The notes under the pieces were generated by a model. The model was not told where the DNA came from and ran no database searches. It saw only the letters and a list, made by a program, of their open reading frames with translations. From Candidatus Hydrogenedentes bacterium CG07_land_8_20_14_0_80_42_17 (lineage in GTDB: Bacteria; UBA8481), in assembly GCA_002780065.1 (NCBI GenBank), contig PEWQ01000076.1, positions 4,101-21,745 of the forward strand: 17,645 nt of DNA, written 5' to 3'. A program made the position numbers and the translations under genes. This document shows, one piece after another, positions 3,186-17,645 of the stretch. How positions within the stretch are numbered: the stretch's first letter is position 1; the number at the start of each line of letters is the position of its first letter.

Positions 3186-4559
3186 ATGTCATTCAATTAT
3201 CCAGAACCTGAACCAAGACCCAAAGGATTGCGTTTTCTATCATACTTTGGGCCGGGCGCTATTCTTGCGTCTGCAACAATCGGCGCAGGCGAAACAATAC
3301 TTGCCGTTCGAGCAGGAGCATGGGGCGAATACAATTTGCTCTGGCTTATTTTTCTCGCAGTAATTACCAAATCCTTTTTCCTTCTCTATTTTCTCGGGAG
3401 GTATTCTGCAATTTCCGGAGATAATATAGCTCAAAGGTTGAAGCAATTTCCTGGCCCTTCCGGATGGTTGCTGCTCTTCATTCTGCTTGCCGACCTCATT
3501 CCTGCAGGACCGGTATTCGCGGCAATTGCCGCGCCATGCGGAAGATTAATCTGGAATATCATTGGCATTGGCAATCCGTCAGTTTATGCTCTAATCTTTG
3601 CATTGGTTGCGATTGTAATTGCTGTGATACAAAAATATGATTTCCTCGAAAAACAGCAAGTAGTGGTCTGCTTGATACTGCTCGCTTGTGTCTCCGCATC
3701 AACACTTATAATCGGCATGAACTGGCGCGCTTTGTTTGTCGGTCTTTTCTCGTTCGGAAAGATTCCTGAAATTCCAGTATGGGCTCAATCCGATTTTGCC
3801 AATCGACCGGTTCTCCTCGAACTTGCAACTGTCTTCGGTTACGCCGGAAACATTGCGATGGGATACATAGTTTACGCGGAATTCATTCGTGAGAAGCGAT
3901 GGGGAGTTTTTCGAAGCGATGTGTCTGCTCCTGAGCCTGAAAAACTTCCGACCGACGCAGAGAACCTTGAGCGTGCCAGAAAAGGGCTCTGGCCCGTCTG
4001 GGGCGATCTTGCTGTCACTTCGATTCTGATTTTTTTTGTCACCGGAGCTTTTCTTGTTGCCGGTGCCGTGATTCTCTATCCGGCGGGAACTATGCCGCGC
4101 GGCTTCGACCTCTTGTCAAAACAAGCTTCTATCTTCTCGGCTATCTCTCCCATGCTCGTTCCTATTTACTATATCGCAATTCTTTTTGCACTGTGGGGCA
4201 CGCTCAATTCTCTTCCTGAAATTTACACAAAAGTCACTTACACTTTTTTGAAAGCGCTGTCGCCGAAATTATTCGCAAATCTTTCGGAGAAATTTCTAAT
4301 GAGACTACTTGGAATTTATTTTGCTCTATGTTCAATAGTGCTCATCGTCTTCAACGTCAAGCCGGCCGTCATGATGGATTTCGTAGGACTTTTTTCCACC
4401 AATCTTGGAGTGACTGCGGCAATGGCTGGAGCACTCTGGCTCGATCACAAACTTCCGCCAAAGCTCCGTGCTCCGACGATAATGTTTTCCGCCGGAATAC
4501 TCTCATTTGCAATTCTTATTTTCTTCTCAATTCTGTCAGCAGTTCAATACTTTTCGTAA
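3186..4559 (+). CDS. Nramp-family membrane transporter lacking the canonical metal-site motifs
   Basis: Inner-membrane protein of 457 aa with about eleven hydrophobic helices, matching the Nramp (SLC11/MntH) size and opening pattern FGPGAILASATIGAGE at 21-36. In canonical Mn/Fe transporters TM1 carries DPGN and TM6 carries MPH, which coordinate the metal. Here the TM1 position reads GAGE (33-36) and the TM6 region reads NIAMGYIVYAEFIRE (222-236), so the Asp, Asn and His ligands are absent. It probably belongs to a divergent Nramp-related clade whose substrate may not be a transition metal. A soluble stretch of about 235-270 (EPEKLPTDAENLERARKGLW) is an extended cytoplasmic loop. The reading frame stays open up to a GTG at 3108, but the extra 26 residues are polar and unlike the family, so ATG 3186 is preferred; it gives the typical short PEPEPRPKG N-terminus. 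The gene is monocistronic, divergent from the HAD operon and convergent with mfd. Confidence 0.85.
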   Translation: MSFNYPEPEPRPKGLRFLSYFGPGAILASATIGAGETILAVRAGAWGEYNLLWLIFLAVITKSFFLLYFLGRYSAISGDNIAQRLKQFPGPSGWLLLFILLADLIPAGPVFAAIAAPCGRLIWNIIGIGNPSVYALIFALVAIVIAVIQKYDFLEKQQVVVCLILLACVSASTLIIGMNWRALFVGLFSFGKIPEIPVWAQSDFANRPVLLELATVFGYAGNIAMGYIVYAEFIREKRWGVFRSDVSAPEPEKLPTDAENLERARKGLWPVWGDLAVTSILIFFVTGAFLVAGAVILYPAGTMPRGFDLLSKQASIFSAISPMLVPIYYIAILFALWGTLNSLPEIYTKVTYTFLKALSPKLFANLSEKFLMRLLGIYFALCSIVLIVFNVKPAVMMDFVGLFSTNLGVTAAMAGALWLDHKLPPKLRAPTIMFSAGILSFAILIFFSILSAVQYFS

Positions 4560-4673
4560 TAATATTTGTGTTTATCAATAAAACCGAACACGCCGTTGGC
4601 GCCTCGCGTCAATGGACGCTCCGAGTCAAAGAACGTGTAGAATAATTGAAAAATGAAAATTGGAAAAATAAAA

Positions 4674-4712
4674 TTTTCAATTTGCACTTTCCAATTTGCA
4701 ATTTCAAATATA
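4674..4712 (-). repeat. 39-bp dispersed repeat, inverted copy of 17542-17580
   Basis: The 203-bp gap between the convergent Nramp-like gene and mfd (4560-4762) holds no gene. Positions 4674-4712 are a perfect reverse complement of 17542-17580 (39/39), and the sequence contains the 14-bp unit GCAAATTGGAAAGT on the minus strand. Within the same gap AAATTGGAAA (4657-4666) pairs with TTTCCAATTT (4688-4697), giving a 10-bp stem with a 21-nt loop. There is no strong T-run, so I do not call it a terminator, although it sits where one would serve both convergent genes. Confidence 0.85.
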
Positions 4713-4762
4713 GAATTAGGTATTGTGTCCCTCTAATTTCTATCAGTCTTCGAATTCGCGGC

Positions 4763-7700
4763 TTATCTTCTTACTAATCTCCGTAGAAAATTGAATTTCG
4801 GTTTAGAGGTTTTTGGAAGCCCCTCTATCACCAAAATATCTCCTTCAGAATGATATGTAATTCTATTTGAGTCCTTCATCGACATAAGCCATCTTTCCGC
4901 ACCCTCCGGCTCTTTCCTCCATCTTATTCTGACATCTAACTCGTTCTCGTAAATTGACTCGACATTGTCCAGCGTTGCATACGCACGTAATTCCGCGATT
5001 CGAAGCAAATTCTCGACAGGATCAGGCAGTCCTCCGAAACGATCAATAAGGCTCTCTCTTAAATCATTCACTTCCGCAACAGACTCAGCGTTCGCAATCT
5101 CACGATGCACCACAGCTACGACCTCTTCGCCGCCAACCCATTCGAACGGAATAAACGCGGAAACTTTAAGTTCTATCACAGACTTATTCTTCTTTGATGA
5201 GCTCTTCTCGCCTTTCAATTCGGAAATAGCCTCACGAAGAAGTCTGCAATACATATCGTATCCTACCGATTCCATCTCGCCGTGCTGAAGAACTCCAAGA
5301 ATTTCTCCGGCGCCTCTAATTTCCATATCTCTGCGCGCAATCGCGTATCCAGACCCGAGCTCAGTGTATTCCGCGATTGCAGCAAGTCGAGCCCGCGCAT
5401 CCGCTGTCATATCGCGCGAATGGAAAAAATATGAGTAGGCTTTCGTATTCGATCTGCCGATCCTGCCGCGCAATTGATAAAGCTGAGCCAATCCAAATCG
5501 CTCTGCCTGATCGATAATCATCGTATTCGCTTTAGGAATATCCAAACCGTTTTCTATAATCGAAGTCGAAATGAGAATAGAAACTTTTCCGGAAATAAAA
5601 TCGAGCATCACCTTCGAAAGTTCACGCTCATTCATTGCTCCATGCGCAACGGCCATCGGTATCTTCGGAAAAAGCCTTTTCAGAAATTGTTCAACGCGCT
5701 CTATGGTCTCTATTCTGTTGTGGACATAAAAAACCTGTCCTCCCCTGTCGAGCTCTCTGCGGATTGCGCGCCGGACATGCTCCTCATTGAAAGGTTCGAC
5801 TACAGTCTGAATCGGAGCTCGGCCCGGAGGCGGAGTCTCGATCATGGAAAGTTGTTTCGCGCCCGAAAGCGCAAGATGTAAAGTTCTCGGAATCGGAGTC
5901 GCAGTTAACGTCAAAATATCTACTCGCTTTCTTAACTCTTTCAACTTTTCTTTGTGTCTGACTCCAAAACGCTGTTCTTCATCGACTATTACAAGTCCAA
6001 GATCTTTGAACCTAACGCTTTGCCCGAATAGTTTATGAGTCCCGATTATTACATTCAAACTTCCGTCGCCGAGCTTCTCCAAGTTTTCTGTAATTTCGTG
6101 CACACTCTGAAATCTCGAAAGAGTCCCGACAGAGATTCCAAAAGGCGTCAGCCGTTCTTTGAATGTTTCAGAATGCTGGAGCGCAAGCACTGTAGTGGGG
6201 CAAAGAACCGCAACTTGTTTTCCATTCCTTACGACCCTAAACGTTGCGCGCAACGCGACCTCAGTCTTTCCATATCCGACATCTCCGCAAAGCAATCTGT
6301 CCATTGGCTCGCGGCAGTTTTTATTCGAGAGTTCACCAAGCACTTCCTCGATCGCTCTCATCTGGTCTTCCGTTTCGTCATAGCCAAAAGTTTTCTCGAA
6401 TGATTCTTCGCTTGGCGACACAGGATAAATCACACCTGGCGTAGCTCTTCTCAGCGCGTAAAGATCGAGCAGTTCCCGCGCAATCTCGGCAGTCTCGCGC
6501 TCCGCGCGTTTACGCATTCTAGACCACGTTGCGGCGCCGAGCTTATCTATTCTCGGGGTCTGGCCTTCAAGCACCGAATATTTTTCCAGCATACCTGTCT
6601 CGTGCGGAGGCAAATACAATCTATCATTCTCTGCATACTCGATCAAAATTACGTCTCGCTCTTCTCCGAGCGAAACTATCCGTTCGATACCGCGGAAAAT
6701 TCCAACCCCATGATTGACATGAACCACGTAGTCTCCGGGATTCAGTTCTCTCCAATCAGTTCTGCCACGCCTCGAAATGCCTTTGCGAATGCGGCGCTTT
6801 ATTCTTCCGAAAATGTCCTCATCGCCGATGACCGAGATTCTACATGCGGGAAGGCGCGCGCCCGAACGCAAATTGCCTTCGATTACATTCACGTTTTTTT
6901 TGTCGATGTGCTCCTCCGAAAGAAGTTCTTTGACTCGGCTGCCGAATGAAGTGCAGATGATTATTTCATCGTCTCTATCGATTAATCTCGAAATATCGAT
7001 TCTCAATATTCTTGCGTCGACCTCAGACGCAGGAAGATGTTCAGTTTCGATTTGGGGAAGAACTCCGTCAGGTAAAGTTTTCATCGAGTCATATTGAAGG
7101 TCAGCCTCTAGCGCTTCGCTAAAAAGAAATTCAGGTTTGAATCCGAGATCGCTTTCTTTTGATTCGCTTGAGGCTTCTTCGAAAAGTTCTTCGAGTCTCG
7201 ATTCGATTCTCTCTTTATCGACGCAGATGATATTTAATTTTCCAAGTTTAAATGCAGAAGTCATTCCTCCAAAAAACGTCTGAAAAAGTTCCATGCCTTC
7301 AATTAAATTTCTCGATCTAATTGCGTCCTTGAATCTTTCCAACCTTAATGAAGGTTTGAGTTCTTTTTCTATTTGTTCGATAGCCTCTTGCCTCAAATCA
7401 TCTTCGAGCGGCAGATGCAATTCGCGCGGAGGAAGTATCAAAGCGGAGTCCACAGTGTCTATTGTTCTCTGAGTCATCGGATCGAAAAGCCGCAGGCTCT
7501 CGATAATGTCGCCGTCCCATGCGATTCGAATTGGATATAAATTGCCGGGCGAATAGAAATCAAGAATCCCGCCGCGCGATGCGAATTCTCCCGGCAAACC
7601 TACTTCGGCGGAATGCGAGTAGCCGGACTCGATGAGATATTTTCTCAAATCATGAGGAGGCAATTCGTCGGCAAATGAAATCTTTTTTGAAAGCAAATGC

Positions 7701-8104
7701 CACAATTCAGTCGAGAGAGTAAGCCTAGAGACAGCGCGCGCCGACGCAATGCATACATTTGGTCTTTCGATTCCGAATTTTGGAAGGTCGATGCCTGCGA
7801 GAAAAGATAATGACTCGACGCGTGACGCGGCTATAGAAGGTTCGAGCGAAGAGGGTTCAAACGGAAGAACATCCCATGCGGGAAGAAGCAACGGTGGAGT
7901 AGAAGTGAATGCTCGAAGAGCTTCATATAATTCTTCAGCTTCTTTTTCGTCCGGCAAAACCACGAGAAATCTAACAGAGCGATTAGAAGCAACACGAGCC
8001 GCAATTGCCGCAGACTGAGCTGTCGCATTAGTTGCAGTTACATCTTTCGCAGAAAGAACGGCATATTGTCTCAGCCGTTCCTCTATTTCATGAAGGTCTC
8101 GCAT
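4763..8104 (-). CDS. mfd: Transcription-repair coupling factor Mfd
   Basis: ATP-dependent DNA translocase that pushes RNA polymerase stalled at lesions off the template and recruits UvrA. At 1113 aa it is close to the usual 1150. Domains in order: a UvrB-homology module (about 1-340, including RGGILDFYSPG near 175-185), a linker domain, the RNA-polymerase-interacting CarD-like domain (about 445-510, NPGDYVVHVNHGVGIFRGIE), then the RecG-like helicase core with Walker A GDVGYGKTE (Lys613), DEEQ motif at 708-711, SIIENGLDIPKAN, and QLYQLRGRIGRS near 877-888. The C-terminal D7 domain (FIPFEWVGGEEVVAVVHREIANAES) masks the UvrA-binding surface. No residue loss or frameshift is seen. The ATG has no clear Shine-Dalgarno. 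It is transcribed divergently from the glycosyltransferase unit and converges on the Nramp-like gene. Confidence 0.98.
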   Translation of the reverse strand: MRDLHEIEERLRQYAVLSAKDVTATNATAQSAAIAARVASNRSVRFLVVLPDEKEAEELYEALRAFTSTPPLLLPAWDVLPFEPSSLEPSIAASRVESLSFLAGIDLPKFGIERPNVCIASARAVSRLTLSTELWHLLSKKISFADELPPHDLRKYLIESGYSHSAEVGLPGEFASRGGILDFYSPGNLYPIRIAWDGDIIESLRLFDPMTQRTIDTVDSALILPPRELHLPLEDDLRQEAIEQIEKELKPSLRLERFKDAIRSRNLIEGMELFQTFFGGMTSAFKLGKLNIICVDKERIESRLEELFEEASSESKESDLGFKPEFLFSEALEADLQYDSMKTLPDGVLPQIETEHLPASEVDARILRIDISRLIDRDDEIIICTSFGSRVKELLSEEHIDKKNVNVIEGNLRSGARLPACRISVIGDEDIFGRIKRRIRKGISRRGRTDWRELNPGDYVVHVNHGVGIFRGIERIVSLGEERDVILIEYAENDRLYLPPHETGMLEKYSVLEGQTPRIDKLGAATWSRMRKRAERETAEIARELLDLYALRRATPGVIYPVSPSEESFEKTFGYDETEDQMRAIEEVLGELSNKNCREPMDRLLCGDVGYGKTEVALRATFRVVRNGKQVAVLCPTTVLALQHSETFKERLTPFGISVGTLSRFQSVHEITENLEKLGDGSLNVIIGTHKLFGQSVRFKDLGLVIVDEEQRFGVRHKEKLKELRKRVDILTLTATPIPRTLHLALSGAKQLSMIETPPPGRAPIQTVVEPFNEEHVRRAIRRELDRGGQVFYVHNRIETIERVEQFLKRLFPKIPMAVAHGAMNERELSKVMLDFISGKVSILISTSIIENGLDIPKANTMIIDQAERFGLAQLYQLRGRIGRSNTKAYSYFFHSRDMTADARARLAAIAEYTELGSGYAIARRDMEIRGAGEILGVLQHGEMESVGYDMYCRLLREAISELKGEKSSSKKNKSVIELKVSAFIPFEWVGGEEVVAVVHREIANAESVAEVNDLRESLIDRFGGLPDPVENLLRIAELRAYATLDNVESIYENELDVRIRWRKEPEGAERWLMSMKDSNRITYHSEGDILVIEGLPKTSKPKFNFLRRLVRR

Positions 8105-8119
8105 AATTCAAGAGATGAG

Positions 8120-8149
8120 AGTATAATCAAGCATAGGTTCCAAAAGCAA
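8120..8149 (-). promoter_or_regulatory. Candidate sigma70-type promoter for mfd
   Basis: On the minus strand, TTGCTT (8149-8144) and TATACT (8125-8120) are separated by 18 bp and lie about 16 bp upstream of the mfd ATG. The -10 hexamer matches the consensus at 5 of 6 positions and the -35 at 4 of 6. If used, the leader would be only about 8-10 nt, in keeping with the missing Shine-Dalgarno. Sequence resemblance is the only evidence. Confidence 0.3.
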
Positions 8150-8218
8150 TATTGAATCGTAAAGAGTATTTATTATTTGACATTATACTAATTTCTTATA
8201 TTTTTTTTATGGAGCTAA

Positions 8219-8266
8219 ATGAAAAGTTATCTTTACTATATTAAATTCGAATTAATAGCTCAATGA
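8219..8266 (+). CDS. Possible 15-codon leader ORF coupled to the glycosyltransferase gene
   Basis: A short ORF (ATG to TGA, peptide MKSYLYYIKFELIAQ) lies in the gap upstream of the glycosyltransferase. It has one of the best Shine-Dalgarno sites in the window, GGAG at 8211-8214 with 4 nt before the ATG, whereas the glycosyltransferase ATG has none. Its TGA overlaps that ATG as ATGA (8263-8266), the usual geometry of translational coupling. A perfect TTGACA lies upstream at 8177-8182, but the -10 options (TATATT after 14 bp, TATTTT after 16 bp) are poor. The peptide may have no function of its own and serve only to deliver ribosomes to the next start. It could also be chance, since short ORFs are common in AT-rich DNA. 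Confidence 0.4.
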   Translation: MKSYLYYIKFELIAQ

Positions 8267-8988
8267 CCTCAAATAGTTCTTTGTTGCGATTCAGTCTAAT
8301 TGTGCCTTGTTACAACGAAGCAGAGCATCTGCATAAAAACGTTGAAACAATTTTGACAACGCTCAAAAAATTAAATGAGACTTGGGAATTAATCCTAGCT
8401 GATGATGGTTCTCATGATGACACTTTCGCCGTGGCTAAAGTCATAGCCGACACCAATTCGAATATTTCAGTTTTTCATCATGAACCCAACCAAGGCAAAG
8501 GAGCTGTATTGCGATCCGCAATGCAGACGGCGCATGGTGAATGGATCGGTTTTATTGACGCTGACCTTGAGATTCCGGCGCACTACCTGCATCAGGTCAT
8601 TGACGCTATGCGGTCAGGTTCGGATATAGCTGTAGGCTCAAAATTTCTGTCCGGCTCCTCAACCCAACGCTCACTTGCACGCAATATCGCGCATTACGGT
8701 TATCGTATACTCACATGGTTTCTTCTCGGCGGCGGGCTTGCCGATGATCAGTGCGGACTTAAATGCTATAAGCGATCGGTATTGATGAATATCTTGCCAT
8801 ATTCGCAAGAAAACAGCTGGGGCTGGGATACAGAAATGATCACCTTTGCCTTAAAAAACAATTTACGTATCGTTGAGATTCCGGTAAAGACATTTGCATG
8901 CCGCACCAGCCGCGTAGCACCATTTCAAGCGGCTTGGCAAACCTTCAAAGTGCTCCTTCGATTAAGACGACGAGGACTACATCTTTGA
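8263..8988 (+). CDS. Family 2 glycosyltransferase, dolichyl/polyprenyl-phosphate sugar synthase type
   Basis: 241 aa. Probably transfers a sugar from a nucleotide donor to a polyprenyl phosphate at the cytoplasmic face of the inner membrane, as do DPM1/ALG5-like enzymes. The GT-A core is complete: SLIVPCYNEAEHL (11-23), ADDGS (46-50) for the nucleotide, GKGAVLRSAM (79-88), the metal-binding DAD (99-101) within GFIDADLEIP, VGSKFLSGS (124-132), the acceptor-side QCGLKCYKRSV (163-173) and SWGWDTEM (185-192). There is no C-terminal transmembrane domain of the GtrB type; a basic tail (LLRLRRRGLHL) may bind the membrane surface. The donor sugar cannot be read from the sequence. Its TGA overlaps the TTG start of the next gene, a DUF2079 membrane protein that could use the lipid-linked sugar. 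The ATG lacks its own Shine-Dalgarno. Confidence 0.92.
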   Translation: MTSNSSLLRFSLIVPCYNEAEHLHKNVETILTTLKKLNETWELILADDGSHDDTFAVAKVIADTNSNISVFHHEPNQGKGAVLRSAMQTAHGEWIGFIDADLEIPAHYLHQVIDAMRSGSDIAVGSKFLSGSSTQRSLARNIAHYGYRILTWFLLGGGLADDQCGLKCYKRSVLMNILPYSQENSWGWDTEMITFALKNNLRIVEIPVKTFACRTSRVAPFQAAWQTFKVLLRLRRRGLHL

Positions 8989-10517
8989 TCAACACGTCAC
9001 TATGGCCTTTTATATGGGTCACTGCTTTCGCACTTGTTCTGGGTCTTTTATCATGGCGTTATGATCGCAGACTAAATCGCCCGCGCTGGCGATTGGCCGG
9101 AATGGTTATGGTCATGCTCCTTGCAGTCGGAACCGCATGGCTTCTCACACAGTATCGAGAATTACAATTGAACTCTCATGTCATCGACAGCCAACTGATT
9201 ACCAATGTGCTCTGGAATACAATTCACGGCAGGCCGTGGTATTCCGACATTGCCGCACAGAATATTCTCGGCCTACATGCCTTTATGAATATTATTTTGC
9301 TCCTCCCTTTTTACCTCGTTTTTCCTACACCTGAATCCCTGCTCTTTGGGCAGTGCCTTTACCTAATAGCTACCGTTGTCCTAGTTTATTATCTCGGCTG
9401 TGCAGTCATGTTAGATCGTCTGTCAGCCGCCAATATAGCCATAGCATTTCTTCTCTATCCGCCTCTAGCAGGCTGTGCTCTCTCTGCTGTGCATCCTGGA
9501 AACCTCGCCATTCCATTGCTCTTTGGAGCTTTCCTAGCTGTTGAACGAAAACGCAGTATTTGGTTCGCCACTCTCGCAATTCTTTCAGCCGCTTCATGGG
9601 AAGCTTCTCTTCTCAGTGTTCCGTTTTTAGGTCTTTGGGTAGCAATCTCTAGACCGATGCTGCGCCGTAGCAGCATCGCGGTGATATTTGTCTCCTTATT
9701 TCTGAGTGGACTTTACTTTTTAGTATTACAACCTTCTTTTTCCGCGCAGAGCGAACATGTCTCAATTGTACGCCATTATTCTCAGCTCGGCGCCAACAAG
9801 AATGAGATCATTCACACCCTGCTAACTGATCCTATGCGCGTAGGACAAATCATATTTCATCGGGACAAGATCGGTTTTATTTTGCATATTCTTCTACCGT
9901 GGCTCTTTTTACCGCTCTCCGCCCCTCTTTGCGCTCTGACCGCACTTCCTGAGCTAGCCATCATTCTTCTCAGTGATCCCGGCGGCGACCTCTATCGAGT
10001 CAACGCCTTCTACACGCAAGTCACTACCGCCGCCTTCTGCTGGGCAACAATGATTGGGAGTATTCGTGTAGCAAGACGATTTGGTTCAGATCATGGTCGC
10101 AACATCCGAGCTATAACTACTGCTCTCCTAGTTATGGCACTCGGACTGCAATGGTGTTATCACCACACACCAGCCCGGCAACTCTGTGAACTGCATGCCG
10201 AAAGGTCATATGCATCAATACCTACTGTGCCAGTACCGGCTGGCGCACGCGTAGTCGTAACTCACGGCGGCCTTGCCCGATTATTTATCGAGCATCGAGT
10301 AACTTATCCTGACCCCTTCATGACACCTTACGCATATAGCCGCAATAATAACGGATCACTGAAACCGGAATATGTCGCAACGCTTGCTGAAGAAGACGAA
10401 GCCGGCGAATCCATTCTAGCCGTCATTCGTCGAAATGAAGAGCTTGAGCTCATCTATGAGAAGCCTGGAAAATTTATTATCTACAAGGTCAATGCACGCC
10501 CAAAAGTTGTAGATTAA
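8985..10517 (+). CDS. DUF2079-family polytopic membrane protein (GT-C-like)
   Basis: About 510 aa with roughly ten hydrophobic helices over residues 8-391, followed by a soluble C-terminal domain (about 395-510). The DUF2079 hallmarks can be recognised: an acidic residue in the first external loop (Asp68 in HVIDSQLITNVLW), GLHAF with His98, LYPPLAGCALSAVHPGNLAIPLLFG (157-181) and WEASLL (205-210). DUF2079 proteins have no proven reaction that I know of but resemble GT-C glycosyltransferases, which use polyprenyl-phosphate sugars outside the membrane. The open frame extends 87 bp into the upstream gene, but TTG at 8985, overlapping the glycosyltransferase stop as TTGA and preceded by GAGG (8972-8975), is the likely start because it places a helix at residue 8 as expected. 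Pairing with a polyprenyl-phosphate sugar synthase supports a two-step surface glycosylation role; this is inference. Confidence 0.8.
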   Translation: MINTSLWPFIWVTAFALVLGLLSWRYDRRLNRPRWRLAGMVMVMLLAVGTAWLLTQYRELQLNSHVIDSQLITNVLWNTIHGRPWYSDIAAQNILGLHAFMNIILLLPFYLVFPTPESLLFGQCLYLIATVVLVYYLGCAVMLDRLSAANIAIAFLLYPPLAGCALSAVHPGNLAIPLLFGAFLAVERKRSIWFATLAILSAASWEASLLSVPFLGLWVAISRPMLRRSSIAVIFVSLFLSGLYFLVLQPSFSAQSEHVSIVRHYSQLGANKNEIIHTLLTDPMRVGQIIFHRDKIGFILHILLPWLFLPLSAPLCALTALPELAIILLSDPGGDLYRVNAFYTQVTTAAFCWATMIGSIRVARRFGSDHGRNIRAITTALLVMALGLQWCYHHTPARQLCELHAERSYASIPTVPVPAGARVVVTHGGLARLFIEHRVTYPDPFMTPYAYSRNNNGSLKPEYVATLAEEDEAGESILAVIRRNEELELIYEKPGKFIIYKVNARPKVVD

Positions 10518-10562
10518 TTTCGCCCAGCCAGAGAATGGTTGTTAATGAGAGACGCTTCCAAA

Positions 10563-12839
10563 TTAATCCGAGTCGAAACGATATTCGAACCAGCCTCCAT
10601 CCGGTTTAGCTATTCCGCCTTCAAACTTCCTGGATTCTCTGTTCAAATACGGTTTGCACCAAATCGGCACATCAGGTTTAATATCTGAAGAAAGTAAATT
10701 GCGCCACTCTTCATCCATTAACAAATTCGAGTTAGGAATTGCAAATTCGTAATACTGGTAAACTGCGCCGCGAGTAAGCCGTCCTCCTTTCGGAGTAGGA
10801 ACGATTACGAAAATTTCATGCGCAGGTCCTATTCCAACCTCTAAAGCTTCTCTCGTAGAACGTCCTACATCTGCAATCACTGCCTGGTTCTTCTTCCCTT
10901 CAGGTAATTGTTTCCACTTATCATTTAAATCATACTCCTCGCCATACTGATCGTTCAAAATACAGCCTGTAGTAATTTGCGAAAATTTCCCACCGATAAA
11001 ATGAATGAATTCGTATTCATCTTTTGTGCGCGGCTCATTGCTCAATTCTTTCAAAACAATTTTTCTGCATTTGGCCACAATCTCATTGAAGAGCTCTAAT
11101 TTTTTCTTTGCTCGTTCCGTAAGGCATCCAAAACGCGAAAGTTCGTTGCTGATTTTTCGAGCTAAATATTCCATCCTCCCAAAAAATAAATCATTCGGTT
11201 CCACATAACCTTTAGGTAGAGACACTTCTAAAACTTCGCCTCCTCCCTCTGCAGAAAAGGCTTCTGAATATAGAATCGTATTATGCCTAAGTTCCGCCCA
11301 CGATCCTAAAGCAGTATTTAAACTCTTTGCTTCCCATGCCTCATTCTTCATAAAAAGCGGATACGGCTTTGCATTATCTGTCGCCAGCGAAGAGAGCATC
11401 CAGAGCGTTGCAGGATAAATTCCTTTCGACCACTCTGTGTCTTTGGTCTCTCTCGTCATTCGAGTCAACTCATTATAATTTTCAGAAAACCAATCCCATT
11501 CTTTTGTCAATGGTTCGGTAATGCGTCGAGCCAGCGGAAAATCGAAAACAGCCATTACATCGGTTCCTGACGCCAGTAGCCTATCCTGCCACATTACCAA
11601 TTTTTGCATAATAAGAGTGTCATAAACAAATCGCTTACCGAAAAATGAAAATTGTCGAGGCGGTGCTAATTCATGGACAATTCGAGATTCAGGAAGTCTT
11701 GTCATCAACGAGTGAAAATGTCTATCAGTTTCAATATTTGTCATCGTCGAAAGATTAAAACTCTCGCCATAAAATTCCTTCATCAATTTTTGAAATTGAA
11801 TTGGAGTTATGTAATTGGAAGTCCCGGTAAAAATATTTATCAGCTCGTCTATACGGTCCCATATCTCCTTTGCAGGTATTCCGCGATATTTTGCAGACTG
11901 CAACGCAGTAGTCATAAGCTGAGCATTCAATGAAGAATCGGAGGTTAAATCACCTTTTGGATTGAGAGGAAAACGTTTAAGAGCGTACCAGCTCATAGCT
12001 CTGAAATAATTTTTCCAATCTTCAGATTGAGTGTAATATCCTCGCGGTTTGAACTCTGCAAAATCCACTCCGTATTCTTCGCCTTCTTGACTTTTAATTT
12101 TGTCAAAGAGATATTTCACTCTGGTTTTTGCCTCGGCCGGGCACTTATTCAGAGTTCTTCTCAATAAAGCATCAGGCACAGAAAAGAAGACAACATTTTC
12201 CAGCGCCGCAGATTTTATTTTTGGATCAGTCGCAGATTTGTACTGTCGATACGACTCTTCGCACATTACAGATGAGATTATCTTGACCCAGCCGTAAATA
12301 ATTCTGCGCTCAATGCGCCGCATTAGATACGAAAATAAATCCGAATAAGTGTGAAGCACAATATCCGTCGTTACAAAATTCGGAATATTATTGTAAACAT
12401 TCTCCTCATAAAAATAATACATCTGAGGGCGAGTCGAAAACGTCGCAACAAAATTATTTTTTGAAAGCAATGCCTTCTGTTCATTGCTCAAAGAGCGAAA
12501 ATCTTTCAAGTTCTCAACATTGGAAAGATTTTCGAGAATAGAATAATTTGGAAGAGCAGGTTCGATGCGAGCCGGCAATTTTAGTATAAGAGTGTCAAAT
12601 TCAGGAGTAAGAAAAGGTTCAGCGTCCTTTACTTGCATTATTTTCGTATTCTCTCTGTTATTTTCCCAATCAAATGAGTTATAGGTTATGCTCTCACGAA
12701 TAGTAGGAAAGTCCGAGGACGACTGAATATCGGCAAATGCGTCGTCGAGGTTGCGTTCTTGCGCCAAAGCAATTTGGTTCAATCCAATTTGAATAAATAT
12801 AGTTACGGTCAAAAGAATAAACCCAATTTTAATTTTCAT
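10563..12839 (-). CDS. Secreted DUF3160-family protein
   Basis: 758 aa with a Sec signal peptide (about 1-26, cleavage after ALA before QERN), so periplasmic or exported. It matches the DUF3160 pattern as I know it: NIPNFVTTDIVLHTYSDLFSYLMRRIE at 151-177, a long helical middle rich in Trp and aromatic residues, EPNDLFFGRMEYLARKI in the C-terminal half, and near the end a segment IADVGRSTREALEVGIGPAHEIFVIVPTPKGGRLTRGAVYQYYEF. The function of DUF3160 proteins is not known to me. The ATG is preceded by GGGGTGA, which fits a Shine-Dalgarno, and it overlaps the TGA of a 3' remnant of the FG-GAP gene as ATGA. This implies it once followed that gene directly as the third gene of an operon with the AsmA-like protein. 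It converges on the DUF2079 gene with a 45-bp gap in which I see no terminator. Confidence 0.82.
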   Translation of the reverse strand: MKIKIGFILLTVTIFIQIGLNQIALAQERNLDDAFADIQSSSDFPTIRESITYNSFDWENNRENTKIMQVKDAEPFLTPEFDTLILKLPARIEPALPNYSILENLSNVENLKDFRSLSNEQKALLSKNNFVATFSTRPQMYYFYEENVYNNIPNFVTTDIVLHTYSDLFSYLMRRIERRIIYGWVKIISSVMCEESYRQYKSATDPKIKSAALENVVFFSVPDALLRRTLNKCPAEAKTRVKYLFDKIKSQEGEEYGVDFAEFKPRGYYTQSEDWKNYFRAMSWYALKRFPLNPKGDLTSDSSLNAQLMTTALQSAKYRGIPAKEIWDRIDELINIFTGTSNYITPIQFQKLMKEFYGESFNLSTMTNIETDRHFHSLMTRLPESRIVHELAPPRQFSFFGKRFVYDTLIMQKLVMWQDRLLASGTDVMAVFDFPLARRITEPLTKEWDWFSENYNELTRMTRETKDTEWSKGIYPATLWMLSSLATDNAKPYPLFMKNEAWEAKSLNTALGSWAELRHNTILYSEAFSAEGGGEVLEVSLPKGYVEPNDLFFGRMEYLARKISNELSRFGCLTERAKKKLELFNEIVAKCRKIVLKELSNEPRTKDEYEFIHFIGGKFSQITTGCILNDQYGEEYDLNDKWKQLPEGKKNQAVIADVGRSTREALEVGIGPAHEIFVIVPTPKGGRLTRGAVYQYYEFAIPNSNLLMDEEWRNLLSSDIKPDVPIWCKPYLNRESRKFEGGIAKPDGGWFEYRFDSD

Positions 12840-12891
12840 TTATTCACCCCATAAATCCTAACAGAAATTTTTCCATCTAATTCAAAAAACT
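12833..12891 (-). repeat. Direct repeat copy A (distal side of Fic cassette)
   Basis: 59 bp matching 14091-14149 at 57 positions, with mismatches at 12841 (t versus c) and 12872 (t versus c). It covers the first 7 bases of the DUF3160 gene and the last 17 codons plus stop of the FG-GAP gene. Identity breaks at 12892. Confidence 0.95.
12836..12891 (-). pseudogene. 3' remnant of the FG-GAP-like gene
   Basis: In the frame of the FG-GAP gene this stretch reads FFELDGKISVRIYGVNK then TGA, against FFELDGKISVRIYGVNE at the end of the intact gene (14094-14148). The two base differences are one synonymous Gly change and one Lys/Glu change. The TGA overlaps the ATG of the DUF3160 gene (12837-12839) as ATGA. 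The remnant has no start and is separated from the FG-GAP body by the Fic gene, so it is the left-behind end of the ancestral gene, or the copied end, depending on the insertion mechanism. Confidence 0.85.
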
Positions 12892-12915
12892 TTATTAACT
12901 TGTAAGTTTTTGTAA

Positions 12916-12994
12916 TGTCACAGTAAATGTCACAGTAAATGTCACAGTAATGTCACAGTAAATGTCACAGTAAATGTCACAGTAATGTCACAGT
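12916..12994. repeat. Seven-copy TGTCACAGT tandem array at the 3' end of the Fic gene
   Basis: Seven perfect copies of TGTCACAGT begin at 12916, 12928, 12940, 12951, 12963, 12975 and 12986. Spacing is 12, 12, 11, 12, 12, 11, a higher-order 35-bp period repeated twice. The core TGTCACA is an odd near-palindrome (reverse complement TGTGACA). The last copy overlaps the Fic stop codon (TGA at 12990-12988), so the array supplies the end of the reading frame. It lies between the Fic gene and repeat copy A, inside the putative cassette. It could be an iteron-like protein-binding array, part of a recombination site, or simple slippage-expanded DNA. Confidence 0.95.
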
Positions 12995-14037
12995 AAAATA
13001 TAATACTTAGTCGGATCAGTTTGACTTTTTAATATTTCTTTAATAATCTTTTTTTCAATTAAATCATTCAAATCTCTCTGTGCTGTCCTGCGGATACAGT
13101 GAGTAATACTCTGATATTCATTTACGTGTATTTTAACATTTTTTATAATATATTTAATGGCTTTCTCTTGACGCATATTCAATCCGATTTGTTTTATCTT
13201 ATACAGTGTAGCATCCTGTTTGATTAGTTGTTCACCTTTTTGACGGATTTCTTCCATCTGTACCCTTAACCCATCAACAAAATATTCAAGCCATCCTGTT
13301 AAATCCATTTTGTTTTTTCTCACTTGTTGAATGGCAGAATAATAGCACTGTCTATCTTTGTCATAATATTCTGACAACGTAAACAATCTCTTAAAGTCAT
13401 AGCCGGTTTTATATAAAATCAAAGCTGAAAGAATACGAGCTGTTCTGCCATTACCATCAATAAAAGGATGAATATGAACTAATTGAAACTGAGAAATACC
13501 TGCTACCAAGACAGGCGAAGTATCGCCGGTCATATTTAACCAGTCTACAAACTCCCGCATTAATTGTGGTATCTTGTACGCGTTTGGCGGCGTATAAATA
13601 ATTTCCCCTGTTCGTGAATTAACTACATAATTCTGCAATTTACGGTAATGCCCTGCATCTGCCCGTCCGCCTCTCACACCTTTGACCAAAATTTTATGAA
13701 GTTCACGAACAATGCCCTCGCGAATAGGCGCATTCTTTCCGAGATGCTTTGAGATAAAATCCATTGCCTTTTTATAATTCAACAGTTCTCTTTCATCATC
13801 ACGATTTACGCCTTTTACTTTTTCCCCTTCCAGAATGCTTCTTGCCTGTTCAAGAGTTAAAGCCGTACCTTCAATATGAGTTGAATAATGCGATTCAAAA
13901 ATAAGCGCCTGCTTCTGCATATCTGAAAACCAGTCATCTTTAAGTTTGACTGCATCTAGAAATCCCCGCACCCGCTCAATTTCTACGAGAGCCTTATTAA
14001 TTTTAGTTGTTATTATAAATTTTGGTTTTAAAACCAT
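12988..14037 (-). CDS. Class II Fic-domain AMPylase with N-terminal inhibitory motif and C-terminal winged helix
   Basis: 349 aa, cytoplasmic. Fic enzymes usually transfer AMP from ATP to a target protein hydroxyl. The active-site motif HPFIDGNGR is intact at 190-198 (catalytic His190, Mg-binding Asp194, phosphate-binding Asn196 and Arg198). A beta-hairpin flap for target binding lies at about 137-153 (YVVNSRTGEIIYTPPNA). The N-terminal Fic_N region carries STHIEG at 52-57, matching the inhibitory (S/T)xxxE(G/N) motif, so this is a self-inhibited class II protein that needs no separate antitoxin. Residues of about 283-349 form a winged-helix fold, suggesting DNA binding or autoregulation. The ATG has a good Shine-Dalgarno (GAGG with 8 nt spacing, minus strand), unlike several neighbours. 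The stop lies within a tandem array. Position between 59-bp direct repeats that split an operon indicates acquisition. Family call is certain; target and biological role are unknown. Confidence 0.95.
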   Translation of the reverse strand: MVLKPKFIITTKINKALVEIERVRGFLDAVKLKDDWFSDMQKQALIFESHYSTHIEGTALTLEQARSILEGEKVKGVNRDDERELLNYKKAMDFISKHLGKNAPIREGIVRELHKILVKGVRGGRADAGHYRKLQNYVVNSRTGEIIYTPPNAYKIPQLMREFVDWLNMTGDTSPVLVAGISQFQLVHIHPFIDGNGRTARILSALILYKTGYDFKRLFTLSEYYDKDRQCYYSAIQQVRKNKMDLTGWLEYFVDGLRVQMEEIRQKGEQLIKQDATLYKIKQIGLNMRQEKAIKYIIKNVKIHVNEYQSITHCIRRTAQRDLNDLIEKKIIKEILKSQTDPTKYYILL

Positions 14038-14090
14038 CTTATATCCTCAAATCTTTCCAATCACTCTATGAGAGCAATTTTCTCGGTTTT

Positions 14091-14149
14091 TTTTCATTCA
14101 TTCACCCCATAAATCCTAACAGAAATTTTCCCATCTAATTCAAAAAACT
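14091..14149 (-). repeat. Direct repeat copy B (proximal side of Fic cassette)
   Basis: Partner of 12833-12891 (57 of 59 identical). It contains the real 3' end of the FG-GAP gene with its TGA, then a leftover ATGAAAA corresponding to the start of the DUF3160 gene, which here leads into unrelated sequence and stops after 16 codons. Identity breaks at 14150 on one side and before 14091 on the other. Confidence 0.95.
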
Positions 14150-14738
14150 CAAGATATTTTCCGTTCTCTCCCTTCAATAATATCTCATCATGAATTCGCT
14201 CGATCGATAATGGCACTGATGAAATGAACGAATGCGACTGCCACAATCCAAAAGAATCCCACAAAAAAATGCTGACGCTGGTATTGCCGTCAACCTTTTT
14301 TAATTCGAGAAGATAATTTTTTTCTCCTATCCGAACACATTCGAAATCATCATATTCCCGTTCTGAAAACCAAAACGGTTTCAATGAATTTTCTTCTATT
14401 TTGAATATATGTATTTTTTTAGTAAAACCGTTTCTGCCCCCAATAGCCCTATCAAAGGCTCCTACAAGCAATTCTATTTTTCGGTCGTTATCAATATCGC
14501 CTGTTCTAACAAAAAAAGGAGTGTAATTTTTTTCGGAATATTTCGAAACTTCTTTAAAGAAAACTCCTTCTCGTTTTAATAATGTGACTCCTCCGGTTCC
14601 TGAATCATTCTTCCATGAAACTGCCAATTCCAATAAAGAATCGTTGTCCGTGTTTACAAGTCTTGATGAATAAAGATGCAGATTATTTTCAGCATAAGCA
14701 TTCGATGATATAAAGAGCAAAAAAAGAAGAGCCTTCAC
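14094..14738 (-). CDS. Secreted FG-GAP/VCBS-like repeat protein
   Basis: 214 aa with a short signal peptide (MKALLFLLFISSNAYA, cleavage likely after residue 16). Two acidic loops of FG-GAP/VCBS type are visible: NTDNDSLLELAVSW at 29-42 and GDIDNDRKIELLVGAFD at 80-96, each with the DxDxD...E pattern that can bind calcium and mark beta-propeller blades. With only two clear loops in about 200 residues it would be a partial or degenerate propeller. The start is GTG, overlapping the TGA of the AsmA-like gene as GTGA, with AGGGG just upstream; it is accepted because the signal peptide begins exactly there. The last 18 codons lie in direct repeat copy B and are duplicated downstream of the Fic gene. 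I do not recognise a specific function; a periplasmic or surface partner of the AsmA-like and DUF3160 proteins is the contextual guess. Confidence 0.75.
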   Translation of the reverse strand: MKALLFLLFISSNAYAENNLHLYSSRLVNTDNDSLLELAVSWKNDSGTGGVTLLKREGVFFKEVSKYSEKNYTPFFVRTGDIDNDRKIELLVGAFDRAIGGRNGFTKKIHIFKIEENSLKPFWFSEREYDDFECVRIGEKNYLLELKKVDGNTSVSIFLWDSFGLWQSHSFISSVPLSIERIHDEILLKGENGKYLEFFELDGKISVRIYGVNE

Positions 14739-17377
14739 TCCCCTTTTTCAGCCCTGTCGGAATCAGTTCCAATAACGCCTTCAATTATCTCTTTGCCGAG
14801 CCGAAGAGGCGACGAAATAATCGAACCCAAAGCGCGTATCTGCCCTCCGATAGAATTGGCTATAACTCTCGATGCAAGCCTTTCCATGATCAAAGAGAAT
14901 TTCGGTTCTTCGAGCGTACCGCTCAGTCTGCCGGTTATCGCCGCGCGGTGTTCTTTGTCGGAGATCAATTCAAGCGCCTGCGCCGCGTTTCTTCCTTCAA
15001 TTTTAATCCGTTCGAGTCCTGGGGCTCTCTCCTTGAATTGTCTTACATCTAAATTCGCTCGAACATCCACAGTTATCGGAGCATTGCGGCCTGCTCCGAT
15101 CGAGCCCTGACAAATAAGAGTAGAGTTTCCCTGATTTAATTCAAACCTTTCGACATGAATCCCATCCGCTTCTGACGTCAACTGAGTTCTCAATTTAAAT
15201 GATTCACCGATCGGCTTGTACCAAGTGTCGCCATAACTCAGAATTGCGCGACCTGCATCAAGCTCAGCATTCACTTTCATCTCTTCATTTCGAGATTCGA
15301 TATCTATCTCGATTCCGCCCTGACCTTCGGCGTCAATAGCGTTTAATAGACTCCAGAGTCGCGAAGCTAAAATAGTTTTTAATCCGTCAAGCCCAGTCGA
15401 CGGATTCGAAAGACTTATTCGATATGCGGCATTGCCGAACTCTCCGTTCAAAGACAGCTTCGTATTCAGAATCCCGAGTTCTCCGTCCTGAATCGTGAAG
15501 GCACTCGAACCAGTCTTCCCGTGAATTCTCAATGATGAGTTCTGTCCTATTCGCTTTGTTCCAACCCCAGCGAAGTCCAGCGAAGTTCCGTCAAGATCGA
15601 GATTAGCAATGATCTCCGCGCCTTCATTGCCACCGGAAGAAACAACCTTGAATGTGCCGCTCGCTTCACCGTCAAAATGAAATCTGCTCGATGGATCCTC
15701 TTTCAAAATAGGAATAAATTTCTTTGCATCTTTCCATTTTATCTTTGGAATAGCTAATGAAATATCGCAACTTTTTTCAGACCATCTTCCGCTTCCTGAA
15801 ATCAAACTTGATGCAAGTCTCAAATTCAAATTTTCGAATTCGAGCGCGCTATCAATAATTTTAATTCTAAAATCGAGATTCGCGCGATCGTTTTTCGGCT
15901 TATTAAAATAATCAGGATAAATTAATTCAGCATTGAGAAGATCAAGTGAACCGTCAACTTCATTCTTTGAAATCTCAGCCTTGCCGGTCAGAGAGCCTTT
16001 CAAAGAGAAAATAGACCTATTGCGAATGAAAGTAAATATGCGCTCTGCATCCTCTCCGCGCAATTCCGTTAGAAGAAGAGCCCATCCGTGATTGAAAGGC
16101 TGGAGAATTCCCTTCGAATTTTCTATCTCGATGTCTATTGAAGAGGGCTTTTGCCCAACAGTTCCGTCTATCTTCAACAGCGATTTTAAATACGGATCCT
16201 TCTCGAGAAAATTTCCGTACAAGGTCTTCGTTTTTGTAAGGTCTATTTCTACTCTGTACTTTTCAAGATTTCTATCAGAGAAGATAGAACACGAGCCTGT
16301 AACCGGGCCTGAAGCAGAAAACGATGGGTCGCACAATAGAAACGAAATATCTTCTGCTTTGCCGTCTTTGGTCATAAAATTCATATTTGTAAAGCGGGCT
16401 TTAGATGTCCTATTTGAAAAACTCCCGTTGCCGGAAATGATCGTATTCTTCCAGAATATTTTTAGGTTTCGAACCTCAGTGACTGTATCTCTAGCTATAG
16501 ATTCTAAAGTGAATCGCGGACTTACTCCGGAAAATTTTGTCTTAGTTATCGTATGTTCTATTTCAGCATCGAGAACTCTCAGATCCGCAGTATGCAAAAT
16601 TGTATCCTGATCGAAATTGAGCCGATACCTTCCATCAATCTTACCCGAATTAATGTTTAGAAAGCCGATGAATTCATAAAATGGTTTTAGAGGGCGAGGG
16701 TCTGCTTCATGAAACTGAATTGTGATTTCAGACTGTCTTGCATTCGGATGAGACTTCATTAAAAAATCAAACGAGCCGAAGCCGACTGCCGGAACTCCGT
16801 TCGCAACAAGAACGTTTCGTATTTCAGAGCCGTCGGAAGTCACAGTCAGCGAAATGTTCGCTTTTTTTAGCGTCAATGATATTCCGCTTTTACCAACTCG
16901 AGAGTCGGAATAATGAATTGTAGCGTTTCGTATTTCAATCGGCATAATAAAAGTCGGATGGTCGTGCCGAGCTGTTTTAGCTTTCCAAAAATCTTCCGTA
17001 TTCCACGGTCTGGTATCAGGCCGTTCATAAAAAACTTCAGGTTTTTCAACTATGATATTGCGCGGCCTGAATCCCGAGGTCTCCCCTCCAGTCATTCCCA
17101 TTGTCAAATAAACCTTATCCGCGTGAAGAAAAATATTTGAAGAGTAGCCAGGCGGATTGTAAACCTTTACATCCTTTAAAGTGACGCGTCCTAAAAGATT
17201 TACTGTTGCTCTTCCTATTTCTACCTTGCGGTCGATCACGGTTTCAAAATAGTCTTTAGCAAGGATTGCAAACTGGTCTGATTCAATTTCATAAAGTGAG
17301 CCGGTCACAACAGCCAGCAAAAGTATCAATCCGCCATAAATTACAATTCTTCGTTTGTTCATGAATTTCATAATCAT
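14735..17377 (-). CDS. AsmA-like envelope protein (bridge-like lipid transfer superfamily)
   Basis: About 880 aa. A single N-terminal membrane helix (RRIVIYGGLILLLAVVTGSLY, about 9-29) anchors a long, almost purely beta periplasmic region, the architecture of AsmA, YhdP and TamB proteins that form lipid-carrying grooves between the membranes. The opening is typical: VNLLGRVTLKDVKVYNPPGYSSNIFLHADKVYLTM followed by GFRPRNIIVEKPEVFYERP. The C-terminal third shows AsmA-type repeats such as AGRAILSYGDTW and GRLSGTLEEPKFSLI. The frame is open back to a GTG at 17404, but that codon lies in a repeat-derived GGAGGCAC, so the ATG cluster at 17377, 17371 and 17362 is preferred; the exact choice is uncertain and none has a clear Shine-Dalgarno. 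It is the first gene of the ancestral operon with the FG-GAP and DUF3160 genes. Which AsmA subfamily it belongs to is not clear. Confidence 0.85.
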   Translation of the reverse strand: MIMKFMNKRRIVIYGGLILLLAVVTGSLYEIESDQFAILAKDYFETVIDRKVEIGRATVNLLGRVTLKDVKVYNPPGYSSNIFLHADKVYLTMGMTGGETSGFRPRNIIVEKPEVFYERPDTRPWNTEDFWKAKTARHDHPTFIMPIEIRNATIHYSDSRVGKSGISLTLKKANISLTVTSDGSEIRNVLVANGVPAVGFGSFDFLMKSHPNARQSEITIQFHEADPRPLKPFYEFIGFLNINSGKIDGRYRLNFDQDTILHTADLRVLDAEIEHTITKTKFSGVSPRFTLESIARDTVTEVRNLKIFWKNTIISGNGSFSNRTSKARFTNMNFMTKDGKAEDISFLLCDPSFSASGPVTGSCSIFSDRNLEKYRVEIDLTKTKTLYGNFLEKDPYLKSLLKIDGTVGQKPSSIDIEIENSKGILQPFNHGWALLLTELRGEDAERIFTFIRNRSIFSLKGSLTGKAEISKNEVDGSLDLLNAELIYPDYFNKPKNDRANLDFRIKIIDSALEFENLNLRLASSLISGSGRWSEKSCDISLAIPKIKWKDAKKFIPILKEDPSSRFHFDGEASGTFKVVSSGGNEGAEIIANLDLDGTSLDFAGVGTKRIGQNSSLRIHGKTGSSAFTIQDGELGILNTKLSLNGEFGNAAYRISLSNPSTGLDGLKTILASRLWSLLNAIDAEGQGGIEIDIESRNEEMKVNAELDAGRAILSYGDTWYKPIGESFKLRTQLTSEADGIHVERFELNQGNSTLICQGSIGAGRNAPITVDVRANLDVRQFKERAPGLERIKIEGRNAAQALELISDKEHRAAITGRLSGTLEEPKFSLIMERLASRVIANSIGGQIRALGSIISSPLRLGKEIIEGVIGTDSDRAEKGE

Positions 17378-17464
17378 AAGCGATAAATGGCTATCTGGAG
17401 GCACATGCGCAACGCATCAATGGGCGCCTTCGCGCGTGCTGGTAAGCATGCAGTGTTTGCACAG

Positions 17465-17528
17465 GCGAGGCGCCTGTGCCTCCAAAGCGAGGCGCCTGTG
17501 CCTCCAGAGCGAGGCGCCTGTGCCTCCA
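17465..17528. repeat. Three GC-rich 20-bp repeats with 22-bp period
   Basis: Three exact copies of GCGAGGCGCCTGTGCCTCCA start at 17465, 17487 and 17509, separated by two variable bases (aa, ga). Each contains the palindrome AGGCGCCT. An inverted partial copy, CTGGAGGCACA at 17395-17405, pairs with TGTGCCTCCAG at 17497-17507. The high GC content contrasts with the AT-rich surroundings and with the adjoining AT-rich repeat, which suggests a dispersed intergenic repeat family. It lies upstream of the AsmA-like operon, where its promoter should be. Confidence 0.9.
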
Positions 17529-17541
17529 TGACGACTCCCGT

Positions 17542-17580
17542 TATATTTGAAATTGCAAATTGGAAAGTGCAAATTGAAAA
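17542..17580 (+). repeat. 39-bp dispersed repeat, inverted copy of 4674-4712
   Basis: Perfect reverse-complement match (39 of 39) to the gap between the Nramp-like gene and mfd, about 12.8 kb away. The match ends at a mismatch on one side (17541) and continues here into the tandem array. Confidence 0.9.
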
Positions 17581-17645
17581 GTGCAAATTGGAAAGTGCAA
17601 ATTGGAAAGTGCAAATTGGAAATTGGAAAGTGCAAATTGAAAATT
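17555..17645 (+). repeat. AT-rich 14-bp tandem array (GCAAATTGGAAAGT), running off the window
   Basis: Units start at 17555, 17569, 17583, 17597, 17611 and 17632. Three are exact GCAAATTGGAAAGT, one has a single A change, the fifth carries a 7-bp internal duplication (AATTGGA), and the last begins to diverge at the window edge. The array continues beyond the sequence supplied. Open frames through it give a repetitive peptide of NLHFPICTFQFA type, which I regard as spurious. Apart from the two arrays, 17405-17645 holds no gene I can support. Confidence 0.92.

What the first reader, a model, noticed from the sequence alone, without database searches (positions are those of the whole stretch)
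12833..14149. A Fic gene has split an envelope operon, leaving 59-bp direct repeats
The repeats 12833-12891 and 14091-14149 (57/59) cover exactly the junction of the FG-GAP and DUF3160 genes: 17 codons, stop and the overlapping ATG. Copy A still reads as the FG-GAP C-terminus, with one synonymous and one Lys/Glu change. Deleting 1258 bp restores two genes overlapping as ATGA, matching the GTGA overlap one gene upstream. A 59-bp duplication without integrase, transposase or terminal inverted repeats is not a standard transposon footprint, so this may be a small non-autonomous, toxin-carrying cassette that rebuilds the 3' end of its target gene.
Basis: partly seen in the sequence, partly recalled or inferred. 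Interest (0 to 1): 0.8.

Follow-up and report, generated by a model that had tools for sequence, protein, structure and literature searches.

The report
Inserted Fic gene with duplicated gene end
A single anti-phage-type enzyme gene, carrying its own row of short DNA repeats, appears to have been slotted between two co-transcribed genes so that the end of the upstream gene now exists twice; the same scar recurs around related genes in other bacteria and looks more like ordinary recombination anchored on the neighbouring gene than like a transposon.

Summary
12833-12891 and 14091-14149 match at 57/59, occur only twice in the genome, and cover 17 codons, stop and overlapping ATG at the FG-GAP/DUF3160 junction. 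No empty allele exists for this site: no held relative has the gene pair. The 1199-bp insert is one gene, a class II autoinhibited Fic of the SoFic (single-gene anti-phage) kind with a C-terminal winged helix, plus a TACTGTGACA array starting at its stop codon. Searching relatives changed the picture. (1) Stop-codon arrays are a family trait; winged helix and array swap together between Fic bodies. (2) Other Fic and AlbA_2 genes are flanked by their own long repeats, usually the upstream gene's 3' end, ending within 0-4 nt of its stop; a perfect 59/59 AlbA_2 case lacks insert and second copy in two congeners. (3) Diverged pairs differ as codons do (16:8:33, p=0.0002), so those second copies came from other functional alleles and are not plain target-site duplications. 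Best reading: recombination anchored in the upstream gene (single crossover of an end-joined fragment, or homology-facilitated illegitimate recombination). Staggered-cut 'long target duplication' remains a rival at this site.

The parts
14094..14738 (-). FG-GAP-like gene (gene X, upstream); its last 17 codons and stop lie in copy B
   Evidence: ORF 214 aa, GTG start overlapping the previous stop as GTGA; Pfam FG-GAP_3 E=0.00085, below the gathering score
14091..14149 (-). repeat copy B: the 3' end in use by the FG-GAP gene, possibly donor-borne
   Evidence: two copies in the genome
12892..14090 (-). inserted unit, 1199 bp: short leader, Fic gene, array, 22-bp tail
   Evidence: interval between the repeat copies
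12988..14037 (-). Fic gene, 349 aa: inhibitory motif STHIEG, Fic motif HPFIDGNGRTAR, C-terminal winged helix about residues 288-348
   Evidence: Pfam Fic 1.4e-18; PADLOC SoFic 2.3e-64; AF2 model pLDDT 81 with helix-strand-helix-helix-strand-strand C-terminus; Foldseek to Fic structures 4rgl, 8cil, 3eqx
12912..12997 (-). tandem array of seven TACTGTGACA units (spacing 11-12 bp) starting in the Fic stop codon; putative operator of the winged helix
   Evidence: same position in homologues; RNA fold z=0.15
12833..12891 (-). repeat copy A: second FG-GAP 3' end, carrying the ATG (and likely the ribosome site) of DUF3160
10563..12839 (-). DUF3160 gene (gene Y, downstream), intact
   Evidence: Pfam DUF3160 1.5e-137
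14735..17404 (-). DUF748/YhdP-like gene, first of the operon
   Evidence: DUF748 E=6.4e-10, below the gathering score; GTGA overlap

Best explanation
A one-gene anti-phage-type module (SoFic-like class II Fic, winged helix, stop-codon array) entered the FG-GAP/DUF3160 operon by recombination anchored in the 3' end of the upstream gene. A DNA fragment carrying [FG-GAP 3' end - Fic - array] either was end-joined into a circle and integrated by one crossover, or recombined homologously at one end and joined illegitimately at the other. Either way the upstream gene keeps a full 3' end (copy B), Fic and array follow, and a left-truncated second 3' end with the start signals of DUF3160 (copy A) follows the array, so both old genes stay intact. 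The array is most likely DNA bound by the protein's own winged helix; it marks the downstream edge of the unit but need not take part in movement. Shown: repeats, anatomy, recurrence at other loci, coding-like divergence of repeat copies at other loci, co-inheritance of array and winged helix. Inferred: the recombination route here, direction of transfer, array binding, and phage defence.
For: Repeat real and unique. Strict unique flanking repeats in 4/35 Fic loci against 2/219 other genes, p=0.004. Repeat = upstream gene's 3' end in the window, L066 (radC), L052, L252 (excisionase-like gene, viral contig) and L217 (AlbA_2 gene after a thi4-like gene, 59/59). Homology stops 0-4 nt past the stop codon in the window, L217, L066 and L052. 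Copies at four diverged loci differ by codon position 16:8:33, p=1.9e-4, so both were functional gene ends. G114: the insert and the second 3' end are absent in congeners G251 and G479, where other genes follow the same gene. dapF-dapA is adjacent in relatives of G392, whereas G392 has Fic in between. E. coli tests with anchored linear DNA gave mostly duplications of part of the anchor, 56 of 60 clones (PMC3240628); the HFIR model of displaced 3' ends was proposed for T6SS arrays (PMC5361080).
Against: No empty allele or donor for this site. The 97% identity here carries no coding signal, so a plain target duplication fits the window equally well. Most Fic loci show no flanking repeat. The model needs a donor with Fic already downstream of the same gene and does not explain the first capture. 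L086 and L061 repeats do not end at an upstream stop codon. Inserts repeatedly end within about 0-35 bp of the array or gene, tighter than random fragment ends should be.
Confidence: 0.5

Rival explanations
1. Insertion with long target duplication of the kind described for restriction-modification genes: a wide staggered break at the FG-GAP/DUF3160 junction was filled in around the Fic unit, so both copies derive from the recipient and were identical at birth.
For: 57/59 identity and a 59-bp length in the reported range; no integrase or inverted repeats; L217 has 59/59 with no second copy in congeners. Long, variable target duplications of the order of 100 bp are described for RM genes (PMC3874152).
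Against: At four other loci the copies diverge as codons do, p=1.9e-4, which a decayed duplication does not predict. Repeat edges at the stop codon in four loci are not expected from random staggered cuts.
Confidence: 0.3
2. Integrase-type event: a non-autonomous element carries an attP copy of the target gene's 3' end and is moved in trans by a tyrosine recombinase that integrates at gene 3' ends.
For: Repeat runs from inside the gene to its stop, as in islands at gene 3' ends; in genus g362 many radC 3' fragments share one left border just after HNHPSG, as site-specific crossover would give.
Against: No integrase in the unit; targets differ at every Fic locus (FG-GAP, radC, excisionase-like, and thi4-like for an AlbA_2 gene); no shared att core was found.
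Confidence: 0.12
3. Remnant of a larger island or composite element, or an assembly artefact.
For: The genome is a 207-contig draft.
Against: The second copy differs at two positions and sits in complete, sensible gene context; flanks are ordinary operon genes; the same pattern occurs in independent assemblies.
Confidence: 0.08

Closest known systems
Insertion with long target duplication of restriction-modification genes (Nobusato 2000; Furuta 2010; summarised in PMC3874152)
   Same: Gene-sized insert, no transposase, long variable direct repeats, mobile defence-type gene
   Different: Carries a Fic gene with an operator-like array; at several loci the repeat copies come from different functional alleles and the repeat ends at the upstream stop codon
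Homology-facilitated illegitimate recombination and single-crossover anchor duplication (PMC3240628); displaced 3' ends in T6SS immunity arrays (PMC5361080)
   Same: Anchor gene 5' of the insert, old 3' end displaced downstream, partial anchor duplication
   Different: Natural case in an uncultured lineage; donor not seen; inserts are repeatedly one gene plus array
SoFic single-gene anti-phage Fic (PADLOC SoFic; PDB 3eqx; PMC12249575)
   Same: Fic domain, N-terminal inhibitory motif, C-terminal winged helix, single gene
   Different: About 25% identity to sampled plasmid SoFics, which lack the stop-codon array; no downstream 47-aa antitoxin gene as in E. coli SoFic (PMC12249575), the array lies there instead
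Genomic islands at gene 3' ends with attL/attR
   Same: Element-side copy completes the gene, displaced copy remains
   Different: No integrase, insert of one gene, many different target genes

Membership tests
SoFic (class II Fic AMP-transferase) | Fic motif HPFx(D/E)GNGRxxR | tested here: met
   HPFIDGNGRTAR in the translation; Pfam Fic 1.4e-18
SoFic (class II Fic AMP-transferase) | N-terminal inhibitory motif (S/T)xxxE(G/N) before the Fic core | tested here: met
   STHIEG at residues 52-57, conserved in homologues
SoFic (class II Fic AMP-transferase) | Score over curated models | tested here: inconclusive
   PADLOC SoFic E=2.3e-64; NCBIfam NF046030 88.5 bits against cut-off 550
SoFic (class II Fic AMP-transferase) | AMPylation and phage protection | not testable with these tools
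   needs experiment
Insertion with long target duplication (RM type) | Long direct repeats flanking an insert without transposase or inverted repeats | tested here: met
Insertion with long target duplication (RM type) | Empty allele with one copy in a relative | not testable with these tools
   no relative carries the gene pair; met in outline for the AlbA_2 case L217, where congeners lack insert and second copy but carry other genes there
Insertion with long target duplication (RM type) | Both copies derive from the recipient target | tested here: inconclusive
   window identity too high to tell; coding-like divergence speaks against it at four other loci
Insertion sequence or transposon | Transposase and terminal inverted repeats, short target duplication | tested here: not met
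   no such gene or repeats at the borders
Homology-anchored illegitimate recombination or single crossover | Repeat is the anchor gene's 3' part and ends where donor and recipient downstream genes differ | tested here: met
   repeat edge 4 nt past the FG-GAP stop; 0-4 nt in L217, L066 and L052
Homology-anchored illegitimate recombination or single crossover | Donor allele with Fic after the same gene | not tested
   no close relatives held

The most novel reading that the evidence does not exclude
Winged helix plus its stop-codon or in-gene DNA array is a swappable, mobile control-and-end module shared by Fic and AlbA_2 defence genes: the array defines the downstream edge of a one-gene cassette that inserts at gene 3' ends by a dedicated, still unknown process.
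Probability: 0.12. Interest if true: 0.8.

Novelty: new variant of a known kind. Interest (0 to 1): 0.52.

Why it matters
It offers a concrete, recurring scar by which single defence genes enter operons without a transposase and without breaking either neighbour, and it provides a test (codon-position pattern of the two copies) that separates recombination with a foreign allele from target duplication. It also exposes an association for which no report was found here: SoFic-like and AlbA_2 genes with related winged helices carry short tandem DNA arrays at or near their 3' ends whose sequence follows the winged helix, which makes a specific protein-DNA pairing directly testable.

Tried and rejected
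Empty site at this locus: no held relative. Array as RNA antitoxin or terminator: fold no better than shuffles, z=0.15. Array motif upstream of Fic as autoregulatory site: mostly absent. L064 repeat: dispersed repeat in its genome, discarded; L081 repeat: a third weak copy, ambiguous. L199/L235: the repeat is a recurring intergenic unit, not a simple flanking pair. L089: dispersed repeats. Genus g362 Fic loci: syntenic, vertical inheritance, no empty site. Fic on plasmids or phages: only distant SoFics of 35% identity or less among the listed records. Single-sequence structure model unusable; replaced by an alignment model. Paper searches found no report of the stop-codon arrays; the open-access library is incomplete.

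Full report
Check of the observation. The two 59-nt copies (12833-12891, 14091-14149) match at 57/59 with spacing 1258, stand far above mismatched flank pairs (98.7 against at most 36.5 bits) and occur nowhere else in the genome. In coding direction each holds one base, 17 FG-GAP codons, TGA and AAAA; the ATG of DUF3160 overlaps the stop. Deleting 1258 bp would leave FG-GAP and DUF3160 overlapping as ATGA, and the upstream DUF748-like/FG-GAP pair overlaps as GTGA. There is no transposase, integrase or inverted repeat at the borders.

The insert. It is 1199 bp and holds one gene and one array. The protein has the Fic motif HPFIDGNGRTAR and, ahead of it, the class II inhibitory motif STHIEG; it matches PADLOC SoFic at 2.3e-64 and Fic structures including S. 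oneidensis Fic 3eqx, although it is far below NCBIfam's SoFic cut-off. An AlphaFold model from a small alignment (mean pLDDT 81) shows a C-terminal helix-strand-helix-helix-hairpin unit, a winged helix. The array (seven TACTGTGACA units, 11-12 bp apart) starts in the stop codon itself.

The array is a family trait. Of 39 Fic loci checked by a strict rule (three or more units), 22 have an array at the stop codon; by a neutral self-similarity score 14 of 37 exceed the 95th percentile of 219 other genes (11 of 219 by definition; p=2e-7). Eight more distant plasmid SoFics have none. The unit differs by subfamily (TACTGTGACA, GGTTGACGCA, GGTTGGCGATTA, CTCGCGACA, ATAGGACATT). L065 and L068 share 91% of the winged helix and the same unit but only 54% of the Fic body, so winged helix and array travel as one module. 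AlbA_2 (PF04326) genes with related winged helices carry 11-12-bp arrays too, at the stop or in frame before the winged helix. An RNA role is not supported (z=0.15). I infer a DNA site for the protein's own winged helix; binding is untested.

The scar recurs. With 300 bp upstream and 160 bp downstream, unique flanking repeats score above 20 in 4 of 35 Fic loci (window, L061, L066, L086) after removing L064 (dispersed) and L081 (ambiguous), against 2 of 219 other genes (p=0.004). One of the two controls is an ATPase gene next to a decayed Fic gene, the other lies between radC 3' fragments, so they are not clean negatives. When 1450 bp was searched on each side, the convincing downstream copies still began within 100 bp of the Fic stop. 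In L066 the repeat is the end of radC; in viral contig L252 the end of an excisionase-like gene, with GTGA and ATGA overlaps on either side of the insert; in L052 the end of a short frame YLNLSPEDACREF(L/M)SK(Y/H). An AlbA_2 gene in G114 (L217) has a perfect 59/59 repeat, the end of a thi4-like gene up to its stop codon; in congeners G251 and G479 other genes follow that gene and there is no second copy. In G392 Fic lies between dapF and dapA, which are adjacent or closely spaced in most relatives examined.

Mechanism. Two facts go beyond a target-site duplication. Homology ends 0-4 nt past the upstream stop codon in the window, L217, L066 and L052; for the two near-identical cases this cannot be due to decay of non-coding sequence. 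And in diverged pairs (radC, L052, mutS in G114, excisionase-like) the differences fall 16:8:33 on codon positions (p=1.9e-4; 18:10:36 with another radC pair in place of the excisionase-like pair), so both copies had lived as gene ends. Both facts follow if a fragment [gene X end - Fic - array] from another allele recombined at X: homology ends where X ends, and the resident X end is pushed downstream together with the start signals of Y. Such products are known. In E. coli, 56 of 60 lac-negative clones from anchored linear DNA had a duplicated part of the anchor, ascribed to single crossover of a re-circularised molecule (PMC3240628), and homology-facilitated illegitimate recombination was proposed for displaced 3' ends in T6SS clusters (PMC5361080). 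For the window itself the 97% identity cannot separate this from long target duplication as described for RM genes (PMC3874152). I give 0.5 to anchored recombination, 0.3 to target duplication, 0.12 to an integrase acting in trans.

Limits. No donor, no empty allele, no reads and few relatives; the first capture of Fic by a given upstream gene is unexplained; L086 and L061 repeats do not end at an upstream stop; DNA binding, defence and AMPylation are inferred from families.

Verdict. The stop-codon array tied to the winged helix is the more surprising part and deserves its own study.

Noticed in passing
L190-L219 (for example L193, L197, L204, L217, L219): AlbA_2/Schlafen-type genes carry 12-bp in-frame tandem arrays just before the winged helix (TTQKTTQK, ASVNASVN) or 11-bp arrays at the stop; same logic as the Fic arrays.
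   Followed up: partly
L235 (G081:C35) 6877-10968: Four copies of a 98-nt intergenic repeat in one stretch of same-strand genes, with two AlbA_2 genes each directly following a copy, like a cassette row; the repeat ends hold TCACATCCC-type direct motifs.
   Followed up: partly
L162-L167 (genus g362): Dispersed radC 3'-end fragments of about 52 codons that all start at the same codon after HNHPSG, as if left by site-specific insertions at radC.
   Followed up: partly
L240 3390-3539 (G114): The thi4-like 3' end abuts a 91-bp foreign-looking mutS 3' end (88% identical to the real mutS, changes mostly synonymous), with a 1985-codon gene before mutS.
   Followed up: yes
L070 (G168:C16) and L071 (G002:C37): Decayed Fic 3' ends with intact TACTGTGACA arrays: 50 codons after a type I hsdR gene in G168, and a Fic remnant split by a DUF234-type ATPase gene in G002.
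   Followed up: partly
L247 2281-2437 and 3520-3676 (Bartonella kosoyi plasmid pTLV-1): A SoFic-type gene lies between two 157-nt copies (83%) of the 3' end of a serine recombinase gene on the opposite strand.
   Followed up: partly
L176 (G447:C30) 4325-6587: Two Fic genes in tandem: one with a long GTTACTGTGACAC array, the next lacking its winged helix and array.
   Followed up: no
window 4639-4709, 17465-17530, 17545-17645: AT-rich 14-bp tandem repeats (CAAATTGGAAAGTG type) at two intergenic places and three 22-bp GCGAGGCGCCTGTGCCTCCA repeats.
   Followed up: no
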